A stretch of DNA of 64,000 bases from Beijerinckiaceae bacterium (GTDB lineage Bacteria > Pseudomonadota > Alphaproteobacteria > Rhizobiales > Beijerinckiaceae): contig JAPZUD010000006.1 of assembly GCA_027533425.1 (NCBI GenBank), positions 558,001-622,000 of the forward strand. The letters are read 5' to 3'. Positions 54,304-58,100 of this stretch are shown in pieces; the stretch's first letter is position 1; each line of letters starts with the position of its first letter. The notes under the pieces are model-generated. The model saw nothing but the letters and a program-made list of their open reading frames with translations. It did not search any database and was not told the DNA's origin. The translations under genes and the position numbers were made by a program.

Positions 54304-54873
54304 GTGTCCGATATGTCCAACCCCGCCACAGGCTGGCATGCCACGACGATCCTGATGGTCCGCAAGGCCGGCGCGACGGTGATCGGCGGGGATGGTCAGG
54401 TCAGCCTCGGCCCGACCATCATCAAGGGCAATGCCCGCAAGGTGCGGCGGCTCGGCAAGGGCGAAGTGATCGCCGGCTTTGCCGGGGCCACGGCGGATGC
54501 CTTCACCTTGTTCGAGCGCCTCGAGGCCAAGATCGAGCAATATCCCGGGCAATTGATGCGCGCCTGCGTCGAACTGGCGAAGGACTGGCGCACCGACCGC
54601 TATCTCCGCCGGCTAGAGGCGATGATGCTGGTGGCGGATCGCACCACCGGCCTCGTCCTCTCCGGCACGGGCGATGTGCTCGAACCCGAGGGCGGCATCA
54701 TGGGCATCGGCTCCGGCGGTATGTATGCCCTCGCGGCTGCCCGGGCCCTGGCGGAAACGGAACTTCCCGCCGAGGAGATCGTCCGCCGGTCGATGCGCAT
54801 TGCCGGCGAGATCTGCGTCTACACGAACGCGAATGTCGTGATCGAGAGCATCGAGGCTGCGCAGGCTACATGA
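54304..54873 (+). CDS. hslV: ATP-dependent protease subunit HslV
   Basis: A 189-residue threonine protease that forms a dodecamer with HslU rings. A 13-residue propeptide ends before HATTIL, so mature Thr1 is Thr14. [16 protein letters not shown] and [20 protein letters not shown] are exact family sequence. The start is GTG 54304 with AGGAG six bases before; ATG 54313 is the alternative. The last 43 conserved codons (54730-54858) are repeated at 55592-55720. The stop overlaps the DUF4272 ATG. It ends in EAAQAT, four codons more than the copied end. Confidence 0.96.
54730..54858 (+). repeat. hslV 3' segment duplicated at 55592-55720
   Basis: 129 bases, 124 identical to the copy in the chimeric ORF. 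All five differences are silent (GCG/GCA, GCT/GCC, CGG/CGC, GTG/GTC, GCT/GCA). Runs of over 80 bases are identical. Confidence 0.97.
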
Positions 54874-55511
54874 GCTCTGAATGGTCAATCCGGAAAAGCA
54901 GGTCGATTGCCCTCCTTCGGGAGCAGAGCATTCCGTATATCCAGCACCTGCCTGAGATTGAGAGCGAGGAAGAGGCAGTTCTTCGAAATTCGGAAGAGAT
55001 CGTTGAACGGATTAGATGCCTTTTCTCGGTCTTTTTTGCTGTGAATAGAGGTGATCAGCCCCATGCGCGCGCGATTGTCGAAAAGCATAACTTGAACTCG
55101 CGGCTTTCTCGCCGCGAACAAGGGATCCTGACTTTTGACTTATTGACCGAGGCAGACTTGGCCGATCTCAGCTGGGGATGTGAATCGCTGGTGGCGCTCG
55201 TTTGGTCATTGGGTGCGATCGATGTCGTACCATCGCCGATGGATTGCATTGATCCAGACTCTTTGGCTTTGGGCTGGTCACTCATCAGCGAAGCCAGCTG
55301 GAGCGGCACAACTCTGCGCCCCTTGGGTGACATTCTCGATCAACGCGATCTCTATTACCGATACCACTGGGCGGTAAGGGATTCCTGGCTGAAGGAACGA
55401 CCTGCTCCAGCAGGACTGATTGCCGGTGTTGTTGCTGAAAGGCATCGTGCCTTCAATTGGCTCACCAGCGACGAATGGGACGATTGGGACAAGGTAACCA
55501 CAGACACATGA
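54870..55511 (+). CDS. DUF4272 domain protein, inserted between hslV and hslU
   Basis: A 213-residue soluble protein. The opening [38 protein letters not shown] (landmark ends RSIALLREQ and SEEIVERI) and the later [32 protein letters not shown] and [11 protein letters not shown] match DUF4272, whose function is unknown. Bases 54901-55080 are about 52% GC by count, compared with 70% in a line of hslU, so it was probably acquired. It overlaps the hslV stop by four bases and its own stop overlaps the ATG of the chimeric ORF by four. Confidence 0.82.
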
Positions 55512-55723
55512 CCGATTTTTCTCCCCGCGAGATCGTTTCGGAGCTGGACCGCTGTATCGTTGGCCAGAAGGAGGCCAAGCGCGCTGTCGCCCTCGCAGCC
55601 GCCCGCGCCCTGGCGGAAACGGAACTTCCCGCCGAGGAGATCGTCCGCCGGTCGATGCGCATTGCCGGCGAGATCTGCGTCTACACGAACGCGAATGTCG
55701 TCATCGAGAGCATCGAGGCATGA
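55508..55723 (+). pseudogene. chimeric hslU'-hslV' remnant (71 codons, in frame)
   Basis: Codons 1-28 copy the start of HslU ([12 protein letters not shown] and [10 protein letters not shown]), 78 of 84 bases identical to 56790-56873. Codons 29-71 copy HslV residues 143-185, 124 of 129 bases identical to 54730-54858, and then a TGA follows. The join falls at a short GCC microhomology and keeps the frame. It ends before the HslU Walker A motif and lacks the HslV active site, so it cannot work as either. Stop and start overlaps (ATGA) tie it to DUF4272 upstream and DUF2157 downstream; it may be translated as a passenger. Confidence 0.93.
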
Positions 55724-56793
55724 TCTCGGAGGAAACGCTGGAGAAGGCGCTTGCCCGGGGGCTGATCGGCCCCGAACAGGCCAGTGCCTTGCGCATGATC
55801 GAGGCGGAACGGCTGCGGACGGAATTCGAGCCGGCTCCGGACCATGAAAAGCTCCGCTTCATCACCGGTTTCGGCGATATCTTCGTGGTCATCGGCCTCG
55901 GGCTTTTCGCTTCCGCCCTTGGCTATTTCCTGATCAACGCCTATGGCGCGATTGTCGGATTTGCCGGCCTCGCCCTCACGGCATGGCTTCTGGCCGAGCA
56001 ATTCAGCCGCCGCCGGCGCATGGCCCTCCCCAGCATCGTGCTGCTGCTGGGCTTTGCGGTGGCGGCCTTCCTCGCCATCAACGGTCTGATCGGCTGGTTG
56101 ACCAGTCCGAAAGCGGTCGCGTTGGGCAAGGCGGCGCTGGATTTCGAGCGGCCTGTGCCGGTGGCGATTGCAGCCCTTGCGACGGCTGGTCTCGTCGCGC
56201 TCCATTACTGGCGCTTCCGCGTACCAATCACCATTGCCGCCGGCGTTGCGGCGCTGGTCCTGGCGCTTTTCGGCGTGATCGCGGCCATTTCGCCTGACTT
56301 CGCCCAGGCCGCTCTTGCGCCGCTGATTCTCGTGGCGGGGATCGGGATCTTCGGGCTCGCCATGCGGTTTGACTCGCGCGATCTCGAACGCCGGACCCGC
56401 AGGACTGATATCGCCTTCTGGCTCCACCTTCTCGCGGCGCCGATGATCGTGCATTCGCTGATCGCGCTGGTCTTTGGCGGTGTCGGCAATATCCGGACCG
56501 GGGCCGCGATCGGCCTGATCACCCTGTTCCTCGGACTCGCTTTGGTCGCCCTGCTCATCGACCGCCGGGCCATCCTTGTCTCCGGCCTTGTCTATGCCGG
56601 AGTTGCCTTCGGCCAGGTCCTCAAGGTCTCCGGAATGACGAATGCCGTCATTCCTGCCACCTTGCTCGTGCTCGGCGGCTTCATCCTGATCCTCAGCGCC
56701 GGCTGGCAGCCGATCCGCCGGATCTTCCTTGCCCTCGTGCCCGCGCGAATGCGCCTCGTTTTGCCCGTGATCCAACCAGGAAGCCCGTCATGA
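55720..56793 (+). CDS. DUF2157 multi-spanning membrane protein
   Basis: A 357-residue protein. A soluble N-terminal 45 residues ([29 protein letters not shown], landmark [10 protein letters not shown]) is followed by about ten hydrophobic helices, the DUF2157 layout. Function unknown. Arg-rich cytoplasmic loops ([20 protein letters not shown]) fit an inner-membrane protein. It starts inside the chimeric ORF's stop (ATGA) and its stop overlaps the hslU ATG by four bases, so it is coupled to hslU. Confidence 0.85.
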
Positions 56794-56873
56794 CCGCTTT
56801 TTCTCCCCGCGAGATCGTTTCGGAGCTGGATCGCTACATTGTCGGCCAGAAGGAGGCCAAGCGCGCTGTCGCC
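56790..56873 (+). repeat. hslU 5' segment duplicated at 55508-55591
   Basis: 84 bases, 78 identical. The differences alter two residues (Ala3/Asp, Tyr16/Cys) and are otherwise silent. Confidence 0.95.
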
Positions 56874-58100
56874 ATCGCCCTGCGCAACCGCTGGCGCCGC
56901 CAGCAGCTGGAAGGCCCGATGCGCGAGGAGGTCCTGCCGAAGAACATCCTGATGATCGGCCCGACCGGCTGCGGCAAGACCGAGATTGCCCGCCGCCTCG
57001 CGAAACTGGCCGGAGCGCCCTTCCTCAAGATCGAGGCGACGAAATTCACCGAGGTCGGCTATGTCGGCCGCGATGTCGAGCAGATCGTCCGCGATCTGGT
57101 CGAGGTCGGGATCGGTCTCCAGCGGGACGCCCGCCGCAAGGATGTCGAGGCCAAGGCCCATGTCGCCGCCGAGGAGCGCGTGCTCGACGCGCTGGTCGGC
57201 TCGACCGCCTCGCCCGCCACGCGCGATGCCTTCCGCCGCAAACTGCGCAATGGTGAGATGGCCGAGAAGGAGATCGAGATCGAGCTTCAGGGCAGCCCCG
57301 CCGGCGGCCTGCCCATGTTCGACATTCCCGGGATGCCAGGCGGCCAGATCGGCGCGGTTTCGCTGGGCGACATGCTCGGCAAGGCCTTCGGCGCGCGCGG
57401 GAAGCCGCGCCGGATGACGGTCCGCGAGGCTTACGAGCCATTGCTGGCCGAAGAGAGCGACAAGCTGATCGACCAGGACCGGATCGTTGCGGAGGCGATT
57501 CGTTCGGTCGAGGAAAACGGCATCGTCTTCCTGGACGAGATCGACAAGATCTCGGTCCGCGAAGGCCGCGGTGGCGGCGATGTCTCGCGGGAGGGTGTCC
57601 AGCGCGACCTGCTGCCGCTGATCGAGGGCACGACGGTGGCCACCAAGCATGGTCCGGTCAAGACCGACCATATCCTCTTCATCGCCTCGGGCGCCTTCCA
57701 TGTCGCCAAGCCCTCGGATCTCCTGCCCGAATTGCAGGGCCGGCTGCCGATCCGCGTCGAGCTGAAGCCGCTGGGCGAGGAGGATTTCCGGCGCATCCTC
57801 AGCGACACCGAAGCCTCTCTCATCAAGCAATCCGTGGCGCTGATGGCCACCGAGCAGGTCTCGCTCTCCTTCACCGAGGATGCCATCGCTGCGCTCGCCC
57901 GCGCCGCCTTCGAGGTGAACAGCAATGTCGAGAATATCGGCGCGCGCCGCTTGCAGACGGTGCTGGAGCGGGTGCTCGACGAGATCAGTTTCACTGCGAC
58001 GGATCGTGGCGGCGAGACGATCGTGATCGACGGCGACTGGGTTCGCCGCGAGGTCGGCGACCTCGCCCGCAACGCCGATCTCTCCCGCTTCATCCTGTGA
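56790..58100 (+). CDS. hslU: HslU ATPase (ClpY) of the HslVU protease
   Basis: A 436-residue AAA+ unfoldase. Walker A is GPTGCGKT at 57-64, Walker B/sensor [10 protein letters not shown], the I domain lies between, and the C-terminal motif SRFIL inserts into HslV. It is complete; only its first 28 codons are duplicated upstream. Separated from hslV by three ORFs but coupled by the overlapping ATGA of DUF2157. Confidence 0.97.

What the first reader, a model, noticed from the sequence alone, without database searches (positions are those of the whole stretch)
54304..58100. hslVU locus carries the scar of two merged hslV-cargo-hslU alleles
Seen: intact hslV, a DUF4272 gene, a 71-codon ORF made of hslU codons 1-28 plus hslV codons 143-185, a DUF2157 gene, then intact hslU. 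The repeats are 84 bases (6 differences) and 129 bases (5 differences). This order is what single-crossover integration of a circularised fragment [hslV 3'-DUF4272-hslU 5'] into hslV-DUF2157-hslU would give; deletion between two tandem copies would give the same. No transposase, tRNA edge or att-like repeat is visible. The mechanism is inference; the repeat structure is directly readable.
Basis: partly seen in the sequence, partly recalled or inferred. Interest (0 to 1): 0.8.

Follow-up and report, generated by a model that had tools for sequence, protein, structure and literature searches.

The report
Fused hslU-hslV scar keeps two cargoes
Between two protease-subunit genes, this bacterium carries a foreign-looking gene and an older resident gene, separated by a small in-frame fusion of pieces of the two protease genes that probably records how the newcomer was pasted in without erasing the old gene.

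Summary
In detail: hslV, DUF4272 gene, 71-codon hslU(1-28)/hslV(143-185) fusion ORF, membrane-protein gene, hslU. The downstream half is the native allele: 11 of 16 congeners have hslV-(this membrane gene)-hslU, and G014 matches the fusion's end letter for letter over the junction. DUF4272 is the newcomer: lower GC than every sampled same-length stretch of the window, absent from all 16 congeners, next to hslVU in none of the 10 other genomes where it was found. The fusion was found only here. The predicted free hslV-DUF4272-hslU allele was not found, so "two merged alleles" is the best reading, not proven; a circular donor is unnecessary. Context: the hslV-hslU slot exchanges cargo repeatedly in this family, and four remnants of lost cargo are 3' ends next to hslU (G320, G335, G016, G034). 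I favour homology-facilitated illegitimate recombination anchored in hslV, with a 3-7 nt microhomology joint. The mechanism is known; this site, and a product that keeps the old cargo whole, are a new variant.

The parts
54304..54873 (+). hslV, intact protease subunit; its codons 143-185 are the source or sister of the second copy
   Evidence: NCBIfam NF003964 E 4.4e-85, TIGR03692 E 3.1e-81
54858..54869 (+). 12-nt extension that gives hslV four extra C-terminal residues (AQAT) and ends at the DUF4272 start codon
   Evidence: none of the 16 congener hslV genes has it; in 10 of 16 the hslV stop overlaps an ATGATTTC or ATGATCTC cargo start
54870..55511 (+). DUF4272 gene, newcomer cargo; ATGA overlaps at both ends
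   Evidence: PF14094 E 7.8e-48; GC 0.533 against window 0.643, no 642-nt stretch in steps of 107 as low; absent from 16 congeners
55508..55591 (+). copy of hslU codons 1-28 (6 differences of 84)
55589..55596 (+). illegitimate joint: 3 identical nt (GCC), 7 of 8 alike (GCCnTCGC), in frame
   Evidence: read
55592..55723 (+). copy of hslV codons 143-185 plus the native stop that overlaps the D2157-like start
55720..56793 (+). D2157-like membrane protein, the resident cargo
   Evidence: same slot in 11 of 16 congeners, 49-85% identity; no Pfam match of its own above cut-off
56790..58100 (+). hslU, intact ATPase subunit
   Evidence: TIGR00390 E 9.2e-175

Best explanation
The locus is the product of a cargo-exchange event at the hslV-hslU slot in which the old cargo was not lost. 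Earlier state: hslV-D2157-hslU with ATGA overlaps (shown in congeners). A DNA fragment carrying hslV 3' end-DUF4272-hslU 5' end entered. Its left end recombined homologously in hslV; its right end, inside hslU codon 28, was joined with 3-7 nt of microhomology to hslV codon 143 of the resident copy (homology-facilitated illegitimate recombination; because this joint lies upstream of the crossover it probably bridged sister chromatids). Result: one intact hslV, the new cargo, an in-frame hslU'-hslV' fusion, the complete old cargo and the intact hslU. The fusion keeps the ATGA overlaps and so may keep translation coupled into the downstream genes; as a protein it lacks HslU's Walker A stretch and HslV's N-terminal catalytic part (motifs recalled) and is unlikely to act as either enzyme. 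Shown: anatomy, native allele, newcomer status, joint. Inferred: donor structure, crossover position, sister-chromatid step, coupling.
For: Repeats and joint. Native junction and congener alleles. DUF4272: low GC, 0 of 16 congeners, 3 other family genomes of 397 and 7 other order genomes of 397, none of these 10 with hslV or hslU within about 1.5 kb. Fusion: 1 of 298 family genomes and 1 of 397 order genomes at E<=1e-15. Of ten differences between the copies (codon-185 boundary base left out), 8 are at third codon positions (p 0.003 against a plain 1/3), as expected if most arose while both copies were functional alleles. In the same family and slot D2157 replaced GNAT and left GNAT 3' remnants at the hslU side (G320: 88% over 109 nt, E 1.9e-37; G335: 78% over 37 nt, E 4e-6). 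Precedents: PMC5361080 (abstract and passages); PMC3784515 (abstract and passages).
Against: No free hslV-DUF4272-hslU allele was found. The hslV pieces are nearly alike (4 of 131) although hslV of the four nearest sister species differs from ours by 15-20 there, whereas the hslU piece differs from our hslU (6 of 84) more than sister species do (1-4); one uniformly diverged donor does not predict this, so one needs a conspecific donor with a foreign tract, or a crossover near the hslV end. The per-site rates of the two pieces do not differ significantly (p 0.19), so in-situ duplication with drift also fits the counts. One hslU' change (Tyr to Cys, in no other locus compared) looks degenerative. 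Remnants on the hslU side could be kept because hslU's translation start needs them rather than because of recombination polarity.
Confidence: 0.6

Rival explanations
1. In-situ tandem duplication first: the native segment hslV(143)-D2157-hslU(28) was duplicated through a microhomology joint, then one D2157 copy was replaced by DUF4272 through its hslV and hslU flanks.
For: Divergence per site of the two pieces is compatible with one age (4 of 131 against 6 of 84, p 0.19); the hslV pieces are closer to each other than to any of the 19 other genomes compared.
Against: 8 of 10 differences at third positions argue against drift of a dead fragment (p 0.003; 6 of 8, p 0.02, if all six hslU' changes and the two polarised hslV' changes are put on the fragment). 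It needs two events, and no slot with the duplicated D2157 intermediate was seen among the family genomes searched for extra hslU starts.
Confidence: 0.22
2. Single crossover (Campbell type) of a circularised fragment hslV3'-DUF4272-hslU5' into hslV.
For: Gives exactly this order. The differing hslV sites lie on both sides of a 95-nt identical stretch in which a crossover could lie.
Against: Requires a circle closed at the 3-7 nt joint; none of the slot proteins matches an integrase or replication family. Sister-species states at the four hslV sites are mixed and do not show a reciprocal mosaic.
Confidence: 0.1
3. Assembly or amplification chimera joining two strain alleles.
For: Repeats of 84 and 129 nt approach short-read length; reads were not available.
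Against: The locus lies inside a 662-kb contig without N; the joint has only 3-7 nt of homology and was seen in no other genome searched, so an assembler would need reads across it; the fusion is in frame and ATGA-coupled.
Confidence: 0.06

Closest known systems
Vibrio cholerae T6SS effector-immunity arrays built by sequential displacement (PMC5361080; abstract and passages seen)
   Same: A conserved upstream part anchors an incoming module; displaced material stays behind downstream; the authors propose a process akin to homology-facilitated illegitimate recombination
   Different: There the old effector or its variable part is displaced and old immunity genes accumulate; here a housekeeping protease operon is the site, the old cargo is kept whole, and the scar is a fusion of the two flanking genes
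Tandem-duplication merodiploids made by transformation in Streptococcus pneumoniae (PMC3784515; abstract and passages seen)
   Same: An incoming fragment bridges sister chromatids and leaves a duplication with a hybrid junction
   Different: There the junction is in repeats (incomplete IS861 copies) and duplications are about 100-900 kb; here the duplicated native piece is about 0.13 kb and the joint has 3-7 nt
Homology-facilitated illegitimate recombination in laboratory systems (PMC3240628; search listing with the start of the abstract; the original papers seen only as references)
   Same: One homologous end, one illegitimate end
   Different: Observed experimentally there; inferred from a natural locus here

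Membership tests
homology-facilitated illegitimate recombination product | one end joined by long homology (hslV) | tested here: inconclusive
   The left boundary is an uninterrupted hslV, but the crossover cannot be placed because no donor allele is known
homology-facilitated illegitimate recombination product | other end joined at little or no homology | tested here: met
   3 identical nt, 7 of 8 alike, at 55589-55596
homology-facilitated illegitimate recombination product | foreign DNA carried between the two joints | tested here: met
   DUF4272: GC 0.533, absent from 16 congeners
homology-facilitated illegitimate recombination product | dependence on RecA and DNA uptake | not testable with these tools
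   needs bench work
two merged hslV-cargo-hslU alleles | hslV-D2157-hslU exists | tested here: met
   11 of 16 congeners
two merged hslV-cargo-hslU alleles | hslV-DUF4272-hslU exists | tested here: not met
   0 of 10 other DUF4272 loci found in 397 family and 397 order genomes have hslV or hslU within about 1.5 kb; conspecific strains not available
integron, transposon or prophage cargo | integrase, transposase or terminal repeats at the insert | tested here: not met
   None of the slot proteins matches such a family; no direct repeats of 30 nt or more in 53.8-58.6 kb except the hslU and hslV copies and a weak family inside hslU; inverted and shorter repeats not scanned; no phage or viral-contig relative of DUF4272
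DUF2157 (PF09925) | match to the Pfam model | tested here: not met
   no match at E<=10; 2 of 18 homologues match, best E 9.5e-4
DUF4272 (PF14094) | match to the Pfam model above cut-off | tested here: met
   162.8 bits, cut-off 27

The most novel reading that the evidence does not exclude
The gap between hslV and hslU is a transposase-free cargo-exchange slot in this family: incoming genes are aimed by hslV homology and closed by illegitimate joints that leave directional scars at the hslU side, and joints are kept mainly when the leftover forms an in-frame ORF that bridges translation into the next gene. The hslU'-hslV' fusion is then a selected translational bridge that lets the slot hold two cargoes at once.
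Probability: 0.35. Interest if true: 0.6.

Novelty: new variant of a known kind. Interest (0 to 1): 0.45.

Why it matters
It is a readable natural record of how a foreign gene can be added to a conserved operon without a visible mobile element and without losing the resident gene. With the scar series in related genera (GNAT ends behind D2157, hslU 5' copies) the hslV-hslU slot becomes a tractable place to measure how often illegitimate joints, rather than clean double crossovers, exchange operon cargo, and whether in-frame coupling filters which joints survive.

Tried and rejected
Donor search for DUF4272 in plasmids (83 records, all under 60% identity, best place listed 36.7%), phages (none) and viral contigs (none): no near donor. 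Neighbours of two distant DUF4272 copies show no shared partner; no solved structure at E<=1, no PADLOC match at E<=0.01, no paper in the held library naming DUF4272: its function is left open. Polarising the four hslV differences with sister species to place the crossover gave mixed states: undecided.

Extra hslU N-terminal matches: 15 of the 373 family genomes with a match (397 searched) have two or more. I inspected 14 of the 15: G000, G275 and G290 are in-slot copies; G216 has a second full-length match on another contig; the other 10 have one weak match (50-55% identity, within residues 2-24) on another contig, taken to be ClpX (recalled, not tested). G148 was not re-inspected; one search lists two of its three matches, on two contigs.

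Bridging ORFs: of family slots with more than 12 nt between the longest gap ORF and hslU, G290, G320, G335 and G074 (L168) are bridged by an ORF that starts on the cargo stop and ends on the hslU start; L137, L143 and L147 are not. Set aside before counting: L119 and L153 (longest ORF shorter than the cargo match, cargo frameshifted), L150 (5.3-kb gap with several genes) and L152 (second gene). With the fusion here that is 5 of 8: suggestive only. Outside the 80 family loci, L010 has a 15-codon bridge of the same kind, while the GNAT and DUF2585 slots with spacers of 40-58 nt are mostly not bridged.

Sampling limits: the 40 loci and the 20 were picked by me from rows printed, not at random; L159 of 80 could not be oriented and was dropped. 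The remnant search kept only the best hit per cargo class and locus, so a second piece of the same class would not show.
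Full report
OBSERVATION. The fusion ORF 55508-55723 encodes 71 residues: hslU codons 1-28 (84 nt, 6 differences), then hslV codons 143-185 (129 nt, 5 differences, the last being the third base of codon 185, where the copies part). These are by far the longest direct near-repeats in the 64 kb (113 and 76 nt by chained 16-mers, next 18 nt). Neighbouring ORFs overlap by ATGA. Pfam and NCBIfam confirm HslV, DUF4272 (Pfam only) and HslU; the 'DUF2157' gene has no Pfam match above cut-off, and 2 of 18 homologues match PF09925.

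NATIVE ALLELE. I fetched the slot from the 16 other genomes of the genus that are held. Eleven of 16 have hslV-D2157-hslU (49-85% identity to our D2157); five have no cargo (gaps 1, 2, 11, 64 and 79 nt). In 10 of the 11 the hslV stop overlaps the D2157 start by ATGA (in G007 D2157 starts 3 nt after hslV). In the nearest cargo-bearing sisters the junction reads GAGGCATGATCTCC (G013), GAGGCATGATCTCGG (G014) and GAAGCATGATTTCGG (G015); the fusion ORF ends GAGGCATGATCTCGG, as G014. So the fusion 3' end, D2157 and hslU are the resident allele. The intact hslV instead carries a 12-nt extension (AQAT) found in none of the 16.

NEWCOMER. DUF4272 has GC 0.533 (GC3 0.57) against 0.643 for the window; no 642-nt stretch of the 64 kb, in steps of 107, is as low (lowest 0.536). 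It is in 0 of 16 congeners. Besides this genome, 3 of 397 family genomes and 7 of 397 order genomes (the samples overlap in part) have distant copies, 40% identity or less, none with hslV or hslU within about 1.5 kb. Plasmid relatives are all under 60% identity; none was found in phages or viral contigs.

UNIQUENESS. With the fusion protein as query, this genome alone gives a full-length match: 1 of 298 family genomes (286 with any match; the printed list is cut but ordered by E-value) and 1 of 397 order genomes at E<=1e-15 (strongly diverged fusions could be missed).

JOINT AND DIVERGENCE. At the joint hslU reads GTCGCC|ATCGCC, hslV reads TATGCC|CTCGCG and the fusion reads GTCGCC|CTCGCA: 3 identical nt, 7 of 8 alike. 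Before the boundary the hslV pieces differ at 4 of 131 nt, all at third positions, while hslV of the four nearest sister species (G013-G016) differs from ours there by 15-20; the hslU pieces differ at 6 of 84, more than those sisters differ from our hslU (1-4). Fisher tests of the hslV:hslU ratio against the four sisters give p 0.003, 0.051, 0.010 and 0.013; per-site rates of the two pieces do not differ (p 0.19); 8 of 10 differences are at third positions (p 0.003 against a plain 1/3, a crude null). Of the six hslU' alleles, the A at 56797 and the T at 56843 are absent from all 16 congeners and present in 44 and 5 of 75 wider loci; the G at 56836 (Tyr to Cys) is in none of either; the T at 56837 is shared with 3 of the 4 sisters. 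I read this as two formerly functional alleles, with a foreign tract around DUF4272 and native-like hslV, plus some decay. The data are few and do not exclude duplication first.

THE SLOT IN THE FAMILY. Of 80 family loci fetched (this genome and 79 others), 79 could be oriented. D2157-type genes sit in the gap of 31 and GNAT acetyltransferases in 10 (one frameshifted); others hold other genes or nothing. Among 80 wider loci, 20 gap ORFs that I selected (D2157-like and antisense ones left out) match GNAT (10), DUF2585 (8) or methyltransferase (1) families. Remnants in the family: G320, D2157 sits where a GNAT was, and GNAT codons 118-166 remain before hslU (88% over 109 nt, E 1.9e-37). G335, D2157 with about 12 GNAT codons left (78% over 37 nt, E 4e-6; found by nucleotide comparison, not by the protein search). 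G016, D2157 gone except its last 75 nt (88%). G034, GNAT gone except codons 132-170 (43.6%, E 2.8e-4). G275 and G290: hslU codons 1-17 or 1-18 copied, followed by about 72 nt, before hslU. All four cargo remnants are 3' ends next to hslU; no 5' remnant beside hslV was detected, though short stubs, or second pieces of a class already present, would be missed. In G290, G320 and G335 the remnant is an ORF whose start overlaps the cargo stop and whose stop overlaps the hslU start; G074 has a similar 25-codon bridge, while L137, L143 and L147 lack one.

MECHANISM. The simplest account is homology-facilitated illegitimate recombination: homologous entry in hslV, illegitimate exit to the right. When the exit lies in the old cargo, the old cargo is truncated (G320, G335). 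In the window the exit, from donor hslU codon 28, landed upstream of the crossover, in hslV codon 143, so the old cargo and hslU stayed whole and a small hslV piece was duplicated. Integration between sister chromatids, as modelled for pneumococcal merodiploids (PMC3784515, abstract and passages), would allow this. The Vibrio T6SS arrays are the nearest analogue I found (PMC5361080, abstract and passages); PMC2884548 (passages) invokes the same process for dimorphic loci. A competing reason for hslU-side remnants is that hslU's translation start depends on them.

PRINT STATUS. In the held library (subscription papers are mostly missing) I searched 'between hslV and hslU' with hslV and hslU (0 papers); hslVU, operon, Alphaproteobacteria, acetyltransferase and hslU together (1 paper, listing only, on another subject by its title); DUF4272 (0 papers); and illegitimate recombination with gene remnant, displacement, operon, chimeric ORF (1 paper, listing only, on contact-dependent inhibition). 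None of these gave a description of this slot.

VERDICT. Observation confirmed; interpretation partly supported; new variant of a known kind; interest 0.45.

Noticed in passing
L006:4379-4504 (Bosea caraganae; same place as G290/L116) and G275/L115: A copy of hslU codons 1-17 followed by about 72 nt lies just before hslU; in L006 it is a 41-codon ORF coupled to D2157 and hslU. Two species share it, one with and one without D2157 in the slot.
   Followed up: partly
L133 (G320) and L134 (G335): D2157 genes are followed by GNAT 3' remnants that form in-frame 39- and 12-codon ORFs bridging to hslU, so D2157 seems to have displaced GNAT with two different joints.
   Followed up: yes
L152 (G088): The hslV-hslU slot holds a GNAT gene and a ParE-type toxin gene (PF05016, E 2.8e-19) that ends just before hslU.
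   Followed up: partly
L150 (G064): A 5.3-kb hslV-hslU gap holds an ABC substrate-binding protein, an adenylate/guanylate cyclase with Cache and HAMP domains on the other strand, and a Crp-type regulator.
   Followed up: no
L119 (G027): The GNAT cargo is split by a frameshift into ORFs of 125 and 42 codons, the second starting on the stop of the first and overlapping the hslU start.
   Followed up: no
L143 (G086): The slot holds a D2157-type gene and a second, 421-codon ORF without a Pfam match, another possible two-cargo slot.
   Followed up: no
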